From IMG/VR virus record IMGVR_UViG_3300021962_000347, positions 1 to 34,401 of that record: a stretch of 34,401 bases of DNA. One strand, written 5' to 3'. A model generated the notes under the pieces. That model saw only the letters and a program-made list of their open reading frames with translations. It had not been told where the DNA came from and did no database searches. Of this stretch, positions 3,467 to 32,302 are shown piece by piece. The stretch's first letter is position 1. Each line of letters starts with the position of its first letter. This DNA is from a virus. A program made the position numbers and the translations under genes.

Positions 3467-3772
3467 TTAGACACCAAAACTTTCACCACAACCACACTGA
3501 GCGGTGGCTAATGGATTTATAACTTTGAGAAAACTACCTCCTAATTCTGTAACATAATCTATTTCACTGCCTATTACAAACATTTCTGCAAGTGGATCCA
3601 ATACTAATATATTCTCAATAGGGTCGCCCCATTTGTATTCACTGTTATCTTTATAAAATCCCCAAACATATTGAAACCCACTGCAACCTCCGCCTTTAAC
3701 ACTTAATGTAACTAGGTCGCCATTTGCCACCTCTTTTAAATATTCTATTGCTTTACTTGTTAATGTTACCAT
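3467..3772 (-). CDS. IscA/HesB-family Fe-S cluster assembly protein
   Basis: An A-type iron-sulphur carrier of 101 residues, the usual family length. The three cluster-binding cysteines are present: C30 in VKGGGCSGFQY, and C93 and C95 in the C-terminal QCGCGESF motif. The family delivers Fe-S clusters to apo-enzymes; in phages it is an auxiliary metabolic gene that may support host or phage Fe-S proteins during infection. The gene overlaps the end of the cytidylyltransferase gene by 20 bases, and AAGGGAAAG lies upstream of its ATG. It belongs to a three-gene auxiliary cassette inserted between uvsY and uvsW. Confidence 0.92.
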   Translation of the reverse strand: MVTLTSKAIEYLKEVANGDLVTLSVKGGGCSGFQYVWGFYKDNSEYKWGDPIENILVLDPLAEMFVIGSEIDYVTELGGSFLKVINPLATAQCGCGESFGV

Positions 3773-4166
3773 TAATGATTCTTTCCCTTAACTCTGAGCT
3801 ACTTAATTTATGTCTTCTTTTGTTGTAATGAATACCCATTTTATGTTTAATATTTTTGCCAGTAAATTCTTTTGAATAATATTCTTCACCAATAAATCGA
3901 ACATCAATAGGAAGATGTGTTAATAAATCTTCTAATTCATTTTCTGTGGTGTATGGTATGATTTCATCTACATATTTAACAGCACTCAATTGTATGTGTC
4001 TTTCCATTAGAGTTTGAATAGGTTTGTTTTTACTTGGCCTATCAACTGTAGGATCAGTTTGCAAACCACAGATAAGATAATCACAATTGTTTTTTGCTTC
4101 TCTTAACATTAAGACATGACCAGAATGTAATAGATCAAAACAAGATGCTGTAAATCCTACGATCAT
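3753..4166 (-). CDS. Cytidylyltransferase-like nucleotidyltransferase (TagD type)
   Basis: A 137-residue nucleotidyltransferase resembling glycerol-3-phosphate cytidylyltransferase, which makes CDP-glycerol from CTP. The N-terminal GFTASCFDLLHSGHVLML carries the HxGH nucleotide-binding motif at residues 14-17, and KLSSSELRERI near the C-terminus corresponds to the second conserved signature (RTxGISTT in TagD). The substrate cannot be told from the sequence; ethanolamine-phosphate or a sugar phosphate are alternatives. Its ATG overlaps the cupin stop (TAATG), so the two are probably translated together and may act in one pathway, for example surface polymer or lipid head-group modification. 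Confidence 0.88.
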   Translation of the reverse strand: MIVGFTASCFDLLHSGHVLMLREAKNNCDYLICGLQTDPTVDRPSKNKPIQTLMERHIQLSAVKYVDEIIPYTTENELEDLLTHLPIDVRFIGEEYYSKEFTGKNIKHKMGIHYNKRRHKLSSSELRERIINGNINK

Positions 4167-4972: not shown

Positions 4973-5001
4973 ATTATACATCAAATTTGTTCAATTGTAA
5001 A
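4973..5001 (-). promoter_or_regulatory. Sigma70-like promoter for the uvsY cluster
   Basis: On the minus strand TTTACA (4996-5001) and TATAAT (4973-4978) are separated by 17 bases. The -10 box ends 30 bases before the uvsY ATG. The -35 box lies inside the 3' end of the second tube-like gene. This would let the recombination and auxiliary genes be transcribed without the late sigma factor. Confidence 0.75.
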
Positions 5002-5484
5002 GCGTTTATGCCTAAAAGTTGCTGTTGCTTCCGCATATGTTATATCAGTATTTCTGGTATCAAAAGCAATTTCGGAAAGATTTGTCGGAAACATGTCTTC
5101 GAAATTGACACGAATATTTGGATTAGCTGTACTATTTAGTATTGTCAATTGAGCGTCGGAGAATACACCACTAGTATCTCCTTGCTTTCTCGTTACTAAA
5201 GTCTTATGTTGATTAAAGTTATCTGGAAAAGCAATGGCAATCATCCAGTTAAAAATTTCTAGATAGTTGTTCATATTTTCATCTACACGAAAAGTAATAG
5301 AAAACTCTCCGTATTCTAGATGATCTGGATTAAAATACAATCGTGAAAAAGGCGTCTGTACCTGAACTTCTGCCATTGAAATAGACGGCAATGTTGCAGA
5401 CTGTATATACAGTTCTACATTCGGCAGTCTACGAATCGTAAACTGAAATCCAAGTGGTGATAAGAAGTTTTGACCGGTTGCCAT
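4981..5484 (-). CDS. Second gp19-family tail tube-like protein
   Basis: A 167-residue beta-rich protein of the T4 gp19 tail tube family. It shows family features: FLSPLGFQFTIRRLPNVEL, then an 'S.TLPSI...EVQTPF' segment comparable to 'A.IPASTLGTIEVPYFGRKVKIAGDRTF' of the main tube protein at 13000-13548, then FSITFRVDENMNNYLEIFNWM, parallel to WTVTVINDEDFLVRNALEQWM there. It sits after gp23, in the place occupied by gp3 in several T4-like marine phages. It may be a tube terminator, initiator or minor tube protein; which one cannot be decided here. It has its own late promoter and follows the capsid terminator. No strong Shine-Dalgarno sequence is seen (ATAGGATAACAA before ATG). Confidence 0.78.
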   Translation of the reverse strand: MATGQNFLSPLGFQFTIRRLPNVELYIQSATLPSISMAEVQVQTPFSRLYFNPDHLEYGEFSITFRVDENMNNYLEIFNWMIAIAFPDNFNQHKTLVTRKQGDTSGVFSDAQLTILNSTANPNIRVNFEDMFPTNLSEIAFDTRNTDITYAEATATFRHKRFTIEQI

Positions 5485-12999: not shown

Positions 13000-13548
13000 T
13001 TAGCCGGTCGAACGACCAGTGATACCACCAGAAACTTCCCAGAAATCATATTGGAATGTCACTGTAAATTCTTCAATCGTGTCTACTGTTTCCCAAGCCA
13101 TTTCAATCGTTGAAACTTCTGAAGGATACAGACCGTTGAATGTATATTCACGAATTGGTACACCTGTTTTAGAAAACTGTGTAATCTGTGCTTGTGCCTT
13201 ATAGAGCAATGGCGAAGCAGAACCAAACTGACGAACGTTCGTTGCGTGAGTATTGATTGAATGCATCCATTGTTCTAGTGCATTGCGTACTAGGAAGTCT
13301 TCATCGTTAATTACTGTGACTGTCCATTCAGCGAATGTTCTGTCGCCAGCAATCTTTACTTTGCGACCAAAGTAAGGAACTTCGATTGTACCTAGTGTTG
13401 AAGCAGGAATTTGTGCCGCCTTGATCATGAAAGGCGTCTTAATTGCTGCCGCAGCGTTAACTGGATTTTGAAGCGTGACTTGGAAGAGAGAGTTGCGGGC
13501 ACCTCCTAATACAAGTTGGCTTCGAATTTCTTGGACGTTAAAAGCCAT
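13000..13548 (-). CDS. 19: Tail tube protein gp19
   Basis: Forms the inner tube of the contractile tail, through which DNA passes. The 182-residue product (T4: 163) has the family pattern: RNSLFQVTLQNP, IKAAQIPASTLGTIEVPYFGRK, AGDRTFAEWTVTVINDEDF, LEQWMHSINTH, and a C-terminal IEMAWETVDTIEEFTVTFQYDFWEV. It follows sheath gp18, the standard T4 order. TAGGAGATTAAAC precedes the ATG, a late promoter lies 26 bases upstream and a hairpin follows. A paralogue of the same family is found at 4981-5484. Confidence 0.95.
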   Translation of the reverse strand: MAFNVQEIRSQLVLGGARNSLFQVTLQNPVNAAAAIKTPFMIKAAQIPASTLGTIEVPYFGRKVKIAGDRTFAEWTVTVINDEDFLVRNALEQWMHSINTHATNVRQFGSASPLLYKAQAQITQFSKTGVPIREYTFNGLYPSEVSTIEMAWETVDTIEEFTVTFQYDFWEVSGGITGRSTG

Positions 13549-29067: not shown

Positions 29068-29442
29068 TTAACTGCCATCGATAATTTTCATAGGCGTTCC
29101 AATTTGTGTCAATCGCATTGCATTTTCAAAATCTTGGTTTTTCTCAAGTTGCTTCTGATGGTTAATTTTCATATTAAGATCCATCTTCATCATTTCTTTT
29201 ACTTCGATATTATCTTTTACCATTTCGTTTCTAAAAGATTCTGTAGCAGCAGCTCCTTGTCTTGTTTCTTTCGCGTTTTCAATCAATAGTATAGGCAACA
29301 ATGACATTGCACAAGACCACACATCTTCTTCTTCACCTGTCTGAGGATGTAAACCTCGTATTTGAATAAACCAACCACAATCAAATTTCCTACAAGGTTT
29401 AAATTTATCCAAAGGACAATTTTGTTTTACTTCAAGTTTCAT
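29068..29442 (-). CDS. Conserved Cys-motif protein, 124 residues
   Basis: The N-terminus has four cysteines (C9, C17, C22, C44, in EVKQNCPLDKFKPCRKFDCGWF and VWSCAM), which could bind zinc or an Fe-S cluster. The C-terminal half is a helix (residues about 60-110, rich in E, K, M and N). The cysteine pattern with 'CPLDxFKPCRxxDC' is, as I recall, common in marine T4-like phages with no known function. The start at 29442 is preferred over a TTG at 29448 because GGAG lies eight bases upstream. A TATAAATA box occurs 75 bases upstream within the oxygenase gene. Confidence 0.75.
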   Translation of the reverse strand: MKLEVKQNCPLDKFKPCRKFDCGWFIQIRGLHPQTGEEEDVWSCAMSLLPILLIENAKETRQGAAATESFRNEMVKDNIEVKEMMKMDLNMKINHQKQLEKNQDFENAMRLTQIGTPMKIIDGS

Positions 29443-29460
29443 ATTCAATTCTCCAAAATA

Positions 29461-30207
29461 TTAACTAAAATGTCTCCAGTTTTGTAAAGGTTGAAGCGCA
29501 TTTGGGTATTCATTTGTATTTATAGTCGTTAAAAGAACATCACCAACAATACTAATCCTAGATTGTTTTAAATCTTCAAGTTTGTTTGGATCAATTTTTA
29601 AAGGGTCTCTTCCAACCATATCAATTCTATTATCTTTATCACCATCAAAATAAGCAACAGAATGTGATAAATTTCCTGGCAAAATAACACACATATTTTC
29701 TTTAATTTCAATTGGCCACCAGTTTCCTTGATATGCAGACCATCCTGGCGAAGTTTTCGTTGATTGCGAAAATCCTTGCCAAGGTTCATATCTCGGTCTC
29801 ATGTCATGAAAACAAAGTTTTTGGTTGACATTTTCAGGAACGTTGATATAATAGATATATGAAAGATGGGTTTCGGCATGATGATGCATTGGATTGCCAT
29901 GGCCATCATCCAAAACATTGACAAATCCTTTTGTAATAGAATATATAAACTGTGCAGGATCAACGCCTAGCAAATCAATGTATGTTTTACATTGTCCAAT
30001 TATATAATGCCATAGAGGTTCTAAATCTAGATCATGGTGTGATAGTACTCGACCATATCCATCAGGTCCTCTATATCCTGGATAATTCGGATCATGATAA
30101 ACATGATTTGAATGATTCTTCCAAAAAACTTCTCTCATTTCTTCATGAAGAGTAAAACTGCCGTCTTCAAGCACCAATGTTGGAAACAGTGTATGTAACT
30201 GTTGCAT
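29461..30207 (-). CDS. 2OG-Fe(II) oxygenase-like protein, 248 residues
   Basis: The metal and cofactor pattern of this oxygenase superfamily is visible: an H108-H109-H110 cluster with E112 and H114 (HHHAETHLSYIYYINVP), the distal H182 in LPGNLSHSVAYF, and R217 in SRISIVGD, which would bind 2-oxoglutarate. The family hydroxylates proteins, nucleobases or small molecules; related genes are common in marine phages. The HLSYIYYINVP pattern is near the 'LSGVYYL' oxygenase group. The target is unknown. It sits in the fibre cluster just downstream of two PP-loop genes. GGAGAAAATCAAC precedes the ATG. Confidence 0.83.
   Translation of the reverse strand: MQQLHTLFPTLVLEDGSFTLHEEMREVFWKNHSNHVYHDPNYPGYRGPDGYGRVLSHHDLDLEPLWHYIIGQCKTYIDLLGVDPAQFIYSITKGFVNVLDDGHGNPMHHHAETHLSYIYYINVPENVNQKLCFHDMRPRYEPWQGFSQSTKTSPGWSAYQGNWWPIEIKENMCVILPGNLSHSVAYFDGDKDNRIDMVGRDPLKIDPNKLEDLKQSRISIVGDVLLTTINTNEYPNALQPLQNWRHFS
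29517..29524 (-). promoter_or_regulatory. Possible late promoter inside the oxygenase gene
   Basis: TATAAATA on the minus strand within the coding sequence of the oxygenase, 75 bases before the ATG at 29442. It could be chance. Confidence 0.5.
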
Positions 30208-30231: not shown

Positions 30232-31113
30232 TTATTCAATTAAACACGACTCAACTTTATCTTCAAACCAATAATAATCCATATACACAGGTTCCGAATC
30301 TCTTTTATAAAAATAATTATTATCATAAACAAAACCAGAGTCCTCTGGCCAAATTTTTGACCTTACTTTGGTTTTTACTGGAATCTGATATACATGACTT
30401 TTAATAATTTGTCTTTCAAGCGTTTCGTCGAATATATGGTACGACGAATATTTAGATTTGTCAATATGTAATTCTGCACTTCTTCTCAATTCATATATTA
30501 TTTGTTTGCTATATGATGTAAAAGGTAAAACATTTTCTGTGCCATCATATAGTCCTGCTGTGTATAGAGCGCGTAAATTAGTTCTGTAAGTAAACTTGCC
30601 TCTTTTTAACGCTCTAGGTATAATAGATGGCATTATATCTCCTGTGTAAATCAGTATAGATTCTTTTGGCATATTTTCTAAGATAATTAAATGATAAAAA
30701 GTTTGCCAATAATCTAAAATAGGAAAATTGTTTTTTTCAGTTATAAGGTCACGATATTTTTTTAACTCTTCAATTGTCAATTTAATAGGTAGATATTTTT
30801 TATTAGCTTCTTTACAAATTTTAGTAAGGTCTTTTGTTTCATCTACCGTCCAAGGACATACAATAGATGCAGCCGTGAAATCAACATTATTATCACAGAG
30901 GGATTTAAATACAAAAGCACTATCCATGCCTCCACTGTGAGCCATGTATATATTTTTATATTTGCTTTTAATTTCTTCACATGCAACAGACACGGCTTCT
31001 TTTAAAGAAGATTTTTTAAAAGAACCTCCATCTTTCATAGTACATGTTATGCTGTTGAGATTATATCTCAAATCTCTTATATTGGTGGTAAACCAATCAT
31101 CATGGACTATCAT
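30232..31113 (-). CDS. PP-loop ATPase, asparagine synthase-like
   Basis: A 293-residue member of the N-type ATP pyrophosphatase (PP-loop) superfamily, which adenylates a substrate before amide or thio transfer. The PP-loop SGGMDSAFVF lies at 60-69 in AHSGGMDS. Downstream LIYTGDIMPSIIPRALKRGKFTYRTNLRALYTAGLYDG is not a family I can name. It has no visible glutaminase domain, so it is not a full asparagine synthase. The start ATG overlaps the stop of the QueC-like gene as ATGA, implying coupling and a joint role. The substrate is unknown. Nucleotide modification, sugar amidation and peptide ligation are open possibilities. Confidence 0.78.
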   Translation of the reverse strand: MIVHDDWFTTNIRDLRYNLNSITCTMKDGGSFKKSSLKEAVSVACEEIKSKYKNIYMAHSGGMDSAFVFKSLCDNNVDFTAASIVCPWTVDETKDLTKICKEANKKYLPIKLTIEELKKYRDLITEKNNFPILDYWQTFYHLIILENMPKESILIYTGDIMPSIIPRALKRGKFTYRTNLRALYTAGLYDGTENVLPFTSYSKQIIYELRRSAELHIDKSKYSSYHIFDETLERQIIKSHVYQIPVKTKVRSKIWPEDSGFVYDNNYFYKRDSEPVYMDYYWFEDKVESCLIE

Positions 31114-31904
31114 AAATCAAACTCAAACATTTCATTGCATGTGAAATAATCTGTGGTCCGATTTTTGTCCGGAGGCACAACCAAATGTCTAAATGCTCTA
31201 GTTCTATTATTGGCATTCCAGGGGTCATTATCATTAATGTTTAAATATTTGCCGAATCTTCCTGCTTTTTGTATAAGATCGTCAATTTCTTCTGCTGTTT
31301 TGCCGGCCTTCTTAAGTAGATAATACAAATATCTGACCTTACATTTCATACATTGGCCGCATCGATTGCAGCCAGATGATGTAAGGCTTCTTAATTCTTT
31401 GGGCATACTTTCATATGTTTCCCACCTGCCCATTGGTTTAGTATCTCTATTCATAAATGGCCAATAGATGGGACAGTTGATAGTCTGTGAAATGACTCGG
31501 TGTATAAGACCTCTACGTCCTAAAAATTTATTATCGTCAACTTTATAAAAGTTTTCTATTGGTTCATTAGTATTAAAAAACCAATTTGACGGAGCAAAAT
31601 TATAAGTGTTGTAACCAAGATAAAGAGTATCAACCTTAAATTTATTAGCTAACAAAGCCTCATTATAATGAAGATTCACCATAGTATTTTCGTGCAATAC
31701 TTCTTCTGTATCTGAAAAATTATAATCAAAATCTCTTACGTTCTTTTTTAACCATCCACATGTTTGAGGATACATTTCTAAATCTTCGCCGTTGGTATCT
31801 AAACGAACAATTCTAGAAACAACTTCATGTTCTGTGTTTTTTAAAACATGGTATAAAAGGGCGGTACTATCAGTACTACTAGACGCCGGCACAAAAACTT
31901 TCAT
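31110..31904 (-). CDS. QueC-like PP-loop protein with degenerate loop
   Basis: A 264-residue protein starting MKVFVPASSSTDSTALLYHV. The position of the SGGxDS loop is filled by SSSTDS (8-13), so two glycines are replaced. C179, C182, C185 and C188 form a CxxCxxCxxC zinc-type cluster in SSGCNRCGQCMKCKVRYL, matching the layout of the C-terminal metal site of QueC, the preQ0 synthase. It is shorter on one side and lacks the rest of the known QueC signature, so it may do a different reaction or be an inactive partner of the neighbouring PP-loop enzyme. AAGGTGAGTAA precedes the ATG. Confidence 0.75.
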   Translation of the reverse strand: MKVFVPASSSTDSTALLYHVLKNTEHEVVSRIVRLDTNGEDLEMYPQTCGWLKKNVRDFDYNFSDTEEVLHENTMVNLHYNEALLANKFKVDTLYLGYNTYNFAPSNWFFNTNEPIENFYKVDDNKFLGRRGLIHRVISQTINCPIYWPFMNRDTKPMGRWETYESMPKELRSLTSSGCNRCGQCMKCKVRYLYYLLKKAGKTAEEIDDLIQKAGRFGKYLNINDNDPWNANNRTRAFRHLVVPPDKNRTTDYFTCNEMFEFDL

Positions 31905-31939: not shown

Positions 31940-32302
31940 TTACTCCACAACCTCTTCAGCTGCGGCAACTGCTGCATCAATTAATGCTTGTGCTTCAGCT
32001 GCAAGTCGTTCTTCTTCTGCAATCCTAGCAGCTTCTGCTGCAGCTGCTGCGGCCGCTGCTGCTTCAATTTCTGCAAGTTTTGTGTTATATCTTTCTACAC
32101 AAGTAGCTGCCCATGCTGGTAATTCTGATATAATTTCGTTTTGACTGCCATCATTAAATTCTATTTCGCCTGCGGCAGAATCATTCCAATTCCACTGTAA
32201 GGCATGTATGTTTTCAGGTACGCCGGTCATGTCTATTCCTTGGACCCAAACATTACCAACATAAACTGTTTCATCTATTGGAATAACTGTAACTCTTGCC
32301 AT
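31940..32302 (-). CDS. Fibre-associated protein with Ala-rich helix, 120 residues
   Basis: The N-terminal half (MARVTVIPIDETVYVGNVWV, then IDMTGVPENIHALQWNWND and GEIEFNDGSQNEII) resembles small proteins next to fibre genes in marine phages, probably acting in fibre assembly; I recall no named function. The C-terminal half is nearly all Ala, Glu and Leu (EIEAAAAAAAAAEAARIAEE), a long helix likely to be a coiled coil. GAGGATAAAATATA precedes the ATG. It lies 41 bases after the fibre gene at 32344. Confidence 0.72.
   Translation of the reverse strand: MARVTVIPIDETVYVGNVWVQGIDMTGVPENIHALQWNWNDSAAGEIEFNDGSQNEIISELPAWAATCVERYNTKLAEIEAAAAAAAAAEAARIAEEERLAAEAQALIDAAVAAAEEVVE

What the first reader, a model, noticed from the sequence alone, without database searches (positions are those of the whole stretch)
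30232..31904. Coupled pair of PP-loop proteins, one with a degenerate loop, inside the tail-fibre cluster
A QueC-like protein with a CxxCxxCxxC site but SSSTDS in place of SGGxDS is joined by ATGA overlap to a PP-loop enzyme with an intact SGGMDS loop. QueC makes preQ0 in 7-deazaguanine pathways, but no QueD, QueE, FolE or transglycosylase is in this window. A pair with one intact and one degenerate active site suggests a heteromeric or substrate-carrying complex. Its placement with virion genes and not DNA metabolism suggests that the substrate may be a virion or surface component. The oxygenase-like gene directly downstream may complete a three-gene modification cassette.
Basis: partly seen in the sequence, partly recalled or inferred. 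Interest (0 to 1): 0.72.

Follow-up and report, generated by a model that had tools for sequence, protein, structure and literature searches.

The report
Phage QueC-like and PP-loop enzyme pair
A marine T4-like phage carries, among its tail-fibre genes, two overlapping ATP-using enzyme genes plus an oxygenase gene, and distantly related uncultivated phages repeat this combination, which suggests an undescribed chemical-tailoring cassette whose target is still unknown.

Summary
P1 (31110-31904, -) has SSSTDS and C179xxCxxCxxC188; it overlaps P2 (30232-31113, -, intact SGGMDS) by ATGA, and a 2OG oxygenase follows.

P1 is a divergent QueC-like protein. It falls below every curated cut-off but aligns full length with Pfam-confirmed phage QueC proteins (BLASTP E 6e-5 for a single pair; 1-2 of 5000 shuffles score as high). 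It keeps the Ser/Asp/Ser ligands of the loop and the Cys4 site but lacks QueC's YxQxHxxE, VPxRN and YPDC motifs.

P2 belongs to a PP-loop family found here in uncultivated phages only. Of 11 other loci with a P2 relative, 10 hold a second PP-loop gene within 6 kb and 9 an iron oxygenase. Sixteen control loci hold no PP-loop gene. ATGA-coupled PP-loop genes recur in L056 and L080/L081. P1 itself was not found elsewhere, but L083 pairs a P2 relative with an intact QueC-like protein.

Most likely this is a late-expressed, two-subunit ATP-dependent ligase or amidase working with an oxygenase. The target is unproven. A 7-deazaguanine substrate is possible: one P2-type trio sits inside a FolE-QueD-QueE operon. 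The absence of preQ0 genes in this window means little, because it is a 34-kb fragment.

The parts
31110..31904 (-). P1: QueC-like protein, 264 aa, degenerate PP-loop and four-cysteine site
   Evidence: full-length match to phage QueC L083:12359-12964 and shuffle tests
31866..31883 (-). P1 loop SSSTDS (residues 8-13), aligned to SGGxDS of QueC
31341..31370 (-). P1 C179xxCGxCxxC188 site, aligned to the QueC zinc site
31110..31113 (-). ATGA stop/start overlap coupling P1 and P2
30232..31113 (-). P2: PP-loop ATPase, 293 aa, of a family otherwise seen only in uncultivated phages
   Evidence: PDB profile hits NAD synthetase 1.1e-6 and TtuA 0.0015
30919..30936 (-). P2 intact loop SGGMDS (residues 60-65)
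30814..30816 (-). P2 Cys100, invariant in 14 aligned family members
29461..30207 (-). P3: 2OG-Fe(II) oxygenase 24 nt downstream of P2; likely same transcription unit
   Evidence: Pfam 2OG-FeII_Oxy_5 4e-11, phrog_81 1e-18; homologues near P2 relatives in L077 and L079
29068..29448 (-). P4: conserved small protein normally directly after a collar fibre gene (context, not part of the cassette)
31940..32302 (-). Small tail-associated protein upstream of P1 (context); homologue called tail assembly chaperone in CRP-361
29517..29524 (-). T4-type late promoter TATAAATA upstream of P4; none lies between it and the window end, so P1-P2-P3 are probably read from further upstream

Best explanation
P1 and P2 are the two subunits of an ATP-dependent ligase or amidase of the PP-loop (N-type ATP pyrophosphatase) superfamily, carried as a late-expressed cassette in the tail-fibre region together with the 2OG oxygenase P3. 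P2, with the intact loop, activates a carboxylate (or carbonyl oxygen) of the substrate as an adenylate. P1, a QueC-like protein that has lost the glycines of its own loop but kept the phosphate-binding side chains and the Cys4 (probably zinc) site, acts as the partner that binds or presents the substrate. P3 hydroxylates the substrate or product. The target is more likely a virion or cell-surface molecule made late in infection than phage DNA. Shown: the genes, loop states, overlap, family assignments and recurrence of the combination. Inferred: complex formation, division of labour, late expression, reaction type and target.
For: P2 relatives (15-30% identity, all core motifs kept) in 11 contigs. 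A second PP-loop gene lies within 6 kb in 10 of these 11 loci and an iron oxygenase in 9 of 11; 16 control loci (13 tail-fibre loci, 3 QueD regions) hold no PP-loop gene and only 2 hold a weak 2OG match. ATGA coupling of consecutive PP-loop genes recurs in L056 and L080/L081. Fibre genes sit just upstream of P2 relatives in L074, L077 and L079. Loop states and cysteine sites are complementary: P1 has Cys4 and no GG, P2 has GG and no Cys4. Other PP-loop genes with altered loops sit in such clusters: L082 SGGWES and SSGLDS. P1 is a real coding gene by codon usage. L083 joins a P2 relative, a subtilase, an intact QueC-like protein and an AspH-like oxygenase in one run, which looks like protein or peptide tailoring.
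Against: No complex or activity was tested. P1 was not found in any other contig. Single-sequence AlphaFold models were useless (pLDDT 31 and 37). The oxygenase profiles were built from the same loci, and several loci are related (L074/L076, L080/L081), so counts are not independent. The tail-fibre end of T4-like genomes is a general hot spot for cargo genes, so location alone proves little. In L080/L081 the P2-type trio sits in a deazaguanine operon and not with fibres.
Confidence: 0.38

Rival explanations
1. The pair belongs to a 7-deazaguanine pathway: P2 and P1 together replace QueC and turn CDG (7-carboxy-7-deazaguanine) into an amide, nitrile or other derivative used on DNA, tRNA or as a free nucleobase; the other genes lie in the unsequenced part of the genome.
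For: P1 is QueC-like. Three P2-family genes lie between FolE and QueD/QueE in L080/L081, whose 240- and 354-kb contigs have no PF06508 QueC. All four P2-bearing contigs over 200 kb have FolE, QueD and QueE; P-SSM2, S-SCSM2R and G056 have no QueD over the cut-off.
Against: P1 lacks the QueC substrate motifs YxQxHxxE, VPxRN and YPDC. No TGT or 9g-type DpdA (no positive control) was found. In the window and in the L074-L079 group the genes sit with fibres. In G050 the CDG genes are 60 kb from the P2 relative. Only three independent large contigs were available.
Confidence: 0.22
2. P1 and P2 are two separate cargo ('moron') enzymes that happen to be neighbours; each acts alone on small molecules or host components, and P1 is still an active ATPase because its Ser/Asp/Ser ligands are kept.
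For: P1 keeps S8, D12, S13. P2 relatives have many different neighbours (FA hydroxylase, amidoligase, Rieske, radical SAM, subtilase). P1 was not found elsewhere.
Against: ATGA overlap, and recurrence of PP-loop genes beside each other in 10 of 11 other loci.
Confidence: 0.27
3. P1 is a decaying, non-functional QueC remnant and only P2 and P3 matter.
For: Loss of both loop glycines and of all three QueC substrate motifs.
Against: Open 264-codon frame with core-like codon usage, full Cys4 site, conserved PF...D and CGQC..C..R positions shared with intact phage QueC, good ribosome-binding site, tight coupling.
Confidence: 0.06

Closest known systems
QueC (PF06508), 7-cyano-7-deazaguanine synthase
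   Same: P1: PP-loop at the very N-terminus, collinear layout, PF...D segment and CGxCxxC..R cysteine site
   Different: SSSTDS for SGGxDS, Cx2C in place of Cx8C at the start of the site, no YxQxHxxE, VPxRN or YPDC; below the Pfam cut-off; overlaps a second PP-loop gene
Cap9 / QatC, QueC-family enzymes of type IV CBASS and qatABCD
   Same: QueC scaffold reused outside nucleoside synthesis; works with a partner protein from the same operon; QatC also lost the Tyr/Asp substrate residues (PMC13329287, PMC13279940)
   Different: Both keep SGGxDS; their partners are a CD-NTase or QatB, here a second PP-loop ATPase; defence operons of bacteria, here a phage tail-fibre region; no PADLOC match
N-type PP-loop ATPases: NAD synthetase, TtuA, LarE
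   Same: P2 profile matches NAD synthetase 1.1e-6 and TtuA 0.0015; LarE best by hhalign for P2 alone
   Different: Similarity limited to the PP-loop half; different C-terminal half; invariant Cys100; below every NCBIfam cut-off
Phage QueC-like protein beside a P2 relative in L083 and in L056
   Same: QueC-like plus P2-family gene in one neighbourhood
   Different: Intact SGGADS loop; in L083 a subtilase gene lies between; in L056 10 kb apart
P-SSM2 tail-fibre cluster with piuC
   Same: P4 homologue, fibre genes and a 2OG oxygenase together
   Different: No PP-loop gene there

Membership tests
QueC (PF06508), for P1 | Score over the Pfam gathering cut-off | tested here: not met
   no hit; weak phrog_1550 hit E=0.005
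QueC (PF06508), for P1 | SGGxDS loop | tested here: not met
   SSSTDS; Ser/Asp/Ser kept, both Gly lost
QueC (PF06508), for P1 | C(x)8CxxCxxC zinc site | tested here: inconclusive
   CxxCxxCxxC: four Cys present, first spacing shortened; metal not tested
QueC (PF06508), for P1 | YxQxHxxE, VPxRN, YPDC (PMC13329287) | tested here: not met
   none present in P1
QueC-like scaffold, for P1 | Full-length similarity to Pfam-confirmed phage QueC proteins | tested here: met
   24% over 190 aa, E 6e-5 single comparison; 1/5000 and 2/5000 shuffles as good
QatC / Cap9 | SGGxDS, defence operon with QatB or CD-NTase | tested here: not met
   SSSTDS; no PADLOC hit to P1 or P2; neighbours are phage tail genes
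P2 phage PP-loop family (this work) | N-I/L-Y/H...SGGxDS, Cys100, Phe198 | tested here: met
   alignment A4, model E 1.3e-75 (P2 is one of the 14 rows, so partly by construction); independent pairwise E 1.5e-14 to L074
LarE | NCBIfam TIGR00268 over cut-off | tested here: not met
   13.6 of 150 bits
Asparagine synthetase (PF00733), for P2 | Pfam hit | tested here: not met
   no hit for P2; 3 of the 8 family members aligned hit, best 3.5e-4
7-deazaguanine pathway enzyme | Acts on CDG or preQ0 | not testable with these tools
   only genomic context in L080/L081 and large contigs
Heteromeric complex P1-P2 | Physical interaction | not testable with these tools
   no complex prediction available; single-chain models failed

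The most novel reading that the evidence does not exclude
The pair is a phage version of QueC-based protein conjugation: using ATP it attaches a 7-deazaguanine-derived (or other carboxylate) group to a tail-fibre or other virion protein, and the 2OG oxygenase finishes the modification. This would be chemical dressing of the virion by repurposed nucleobase enzymes.
Probability: 0.07. Interest if true: 0.92.

Novelty: new variant of a known kind. Interest (0 to 1): 0.6.

Why it matters
QueC-family enzymes have only just been shown to modify proteins in anti-phage defence. A phage lineage that repeatedly places paired PP-loop ATPases beside iron oxygenases and fibre genes would be the phage-side counterpart, or else a new branch of 7-deazaguanine chemistry that dispenses with canonical QueC. 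Either outcome can be tested with a handful of genes, and no cultured phage record searched here holds P1, P2 or the three relatives tried.

Tried and rejected
Eight-residue pattern scans of IMG/VR with P1 and P2 and motif patterns for AxSGGMDSA and the Cys site gave only chance matches. tblastn of P1, P2 and three P2-family or neighbouring PP-loop proteins in 50,697 phage records gave nothing meaningful. The Aerococcus hit from genome contigs is chance: a shared 8-mer with stops in frame. Carboxymuconolactone decarboxylase and Fer4 hits of P1 are sub-threshold cysteine or helix matches. Single-sequence AlphaFold models were too poor to search, so no fold search was run. Masked copies of P1/P2 were generated as search masks but not used. 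DpdA search with phage 9g DpdA was empty but lacked a positive control. Literature searches found no description of such a cassette, within an open-access library only.

Full report
Setting. The window is a 34,401-base virus record from a T4-like phage: late sigma factor, UvsW, major capsid, scaffold, prohead protease, portal, tail tube, sheath, terminase and neck genes are all recognised. The sheath is closest to Sinorhizobium phages phiN3/phiM12 at 56%. Ten perfect T4-type late promoters TATAAATA occur, all on the minus strand; 3.2 are expected on both strands and none of 100 shuffles reaches ten.

Observation. Codon usage shows both are genuine genes. P1, P2 and P3 sit between a small tail-associated gene (31940-32302) and P4, a conserved protein that in other phages follows the collar fibre gene directly. 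The trio is therefore an insert into a fibre/chaperone module. A 2OG oxygenase near P4 is not unusual by itself: P-SSM2 has piuC there.

P1. Curated libraries give nothing over cut-off. Evidence that P1 is QueC-like: (a) its best PHROG match is QueC-like phrog_1550, E 0.005; (b) hhalign ranks QueC profiles above LarE, MnmA, ThiI and other phage PP-loop profiles, and reversed P1 scores far lower; (c) it aligns over 190 residues with a phage protein that Pfam itself calls QueC (L083:12359-12964), sharing S8, D12, S13, P149-F150, D154 and the C..CGQC..C..R block; (d) 1 of 5000 and 2 of 5000 shuffles score as high against two QueC profiles. This is good but not overwhelming support. P1 lacks the substrate motifs that define canonical QueC (PMC13329287). 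In QatC the loop residues S156, D160 and S161 hold the ATP phosphates (PMC13279940), and P1 keeps all three equivalents. 'Dead' is therefore not established; 'altered' is.

P2. A looser pattern built on NIY...SGGxDS uncovered a real family in uncultivated phages: L056, L057, L058, L060-L063, then L077 and L080-L083 by an alignment-based scan. Fourteen members align with invariant N54, S60, G61, G62, S65, C100 and F198. The profile reaches NAD synthetase (1.1e-6) and TtuA (0.0015) in the PDB, which places P2 in the N-type PP-loop superfamily. P2 and three related proteins have no match in 50,697 phage records.

Recurrent combination. Around P2 relatives (within 6 kb), 10 of 11 other loci hold a second PP-loop gene and 9 of 11 hold an iron oxygenase (2OG, Asp/Asn hydroxylase type, fatty-acid hydroxylase or Rieske). 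With the window the figures are 11 of 12 and 10 of 12. Sixteen control loci hold no PP-loop gene; two hold a weak 2OG match. The oxygenase profiles were built from these loci, so that contrast is biased; an independent Pfam scan of 110 neighbouring proteins also found many oxygenases. L074/L076 and L080/L081 are near relatives, so the number of independent cases is about nine. Two cases match the window's ATGA coupling: L056 (CAATGAAA) and the last two genes of the L080/L081 trio (AGATGAAA). Altered loops are seen again in L082: SGGWES in a P2 relative and SSGLDS in another PP-loop protein. In L083 a P2 relative, a subtilisin-type protease, an intact QueC-like protein and an AspH-like protein follow each other.

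Deazaguanine link. In L080/L081 three P2-type genes and two Rieske genes lie in one run with FolE, QueD and QueE, and those large contigs have no PF06508 QueC. All four P2-bearing contigs over 200 kb (three independent) carry FolE, QueD and QueE. Three other large phages have no QueD over cut-off. In G054 another P2-type copy lies 1.6 kb from FolE. TGT was not found. The numbers are small and large phages often carry these genes, so this is a lead and not proof.

Mechanism. PP-loop enzymes activate a carboxylate or carbonyl oxygen with ATP and pass it to a nitrogen or sulfur nucleophile (general knowledge of the superfamily). P2 has everything needed for activation. P1 has a QueC-type frame, an altered loop and the Cys4 site. 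With the overlap, the simplest reading is a heteromer in which P2 activates and P1 binds or presents the substrate, and P3 oxidises. Complex, chemistry and target are inferred. The fibre-side location and protein-tailoring neighbours elsewhere (protease, amidoligase, hydroxylases, radical SAM) favour a virion, peptide or surface target; the L080/L081 operon favours a nucleobase. The known Cap9 reaction, which joins a 7-deazaguanine to a protein N-terminus (PMC11996544), shows that the two need not be alternatives.

Limits. Searches of IMG/VR need exact pattern matches, so absence of P1 elsewhere is weak evidence. No structure of usable quality was obtained. The window is a fragment from a metagenome.

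Noticed in passing
L080:5326-13665 (and the near-identical L081): One run with FolE, a Rieske oxygenase, three tandem P2-type PP-loop genes, QueD, a second Rieske oxygenase and QueE, with no PF06508 QueC in the 240- or 354-kb contig: a possible QueC-less deazaguanine pathway.
   Followed up: partly
L083:9111-13830: 2OG-like gene on the other strand, then P2 relative, subtilisin-like protease, QueC-like protein (protease and QueC genes overlap by 1 nt) and AspH-like protein; looks like a peptide or protein tailoring cluster on a phage contig.
   Followed up: partly
L082:9890-18210: Four PP-loop genes in 8 kb, two with altered loops (SGGWES, SSGLDS), beside two Asp/Asn-hydroxylase-like genes and a desaturase-like gene.
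   Followed up: partly
L074:8511-12154, also L076, L077, L079: Conserved island after the fibre genes: a second PP-loop family (340-400 aa), fatty-acid hydroxylase, P2 relative and 2OG oxygenases; in L074/L076 also an amidoligase, in L079 radical SAM proteins.
   Followed up: partly
window 4981-5484 and 13000-13548: Two different tail-tube (phrog_45) genes in the same phage.
   Followed up: no
window 3753-4166: Short gene matching phage heptose-1-phosphate adenylyltransferase (phrog_7878), a possible surface-sugar gene outside the fibre region.
   Followed up: no
window 29068-29448 (P4): Small protein with a conserved CPLxKFKPCRxFDCGWF motif found directly after collar fibre genes in phages of different families, including the podovirus CRP-361; function unknown.
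   Followed up: partly
L024:9305-18816 (Synechococcus phage S-SCSM2R): P4 homologue beside a cluster of 2OG oxygenases, glycosyltransferases, a radical SAM maturase and an amidinotransferase.
   Followed up: no
window 30814-30816 (P2 Cys100): A cysteine invariant in all 14 P2-family members although overall identity is 15-26%; may be catalytic.
   Followed up: partly
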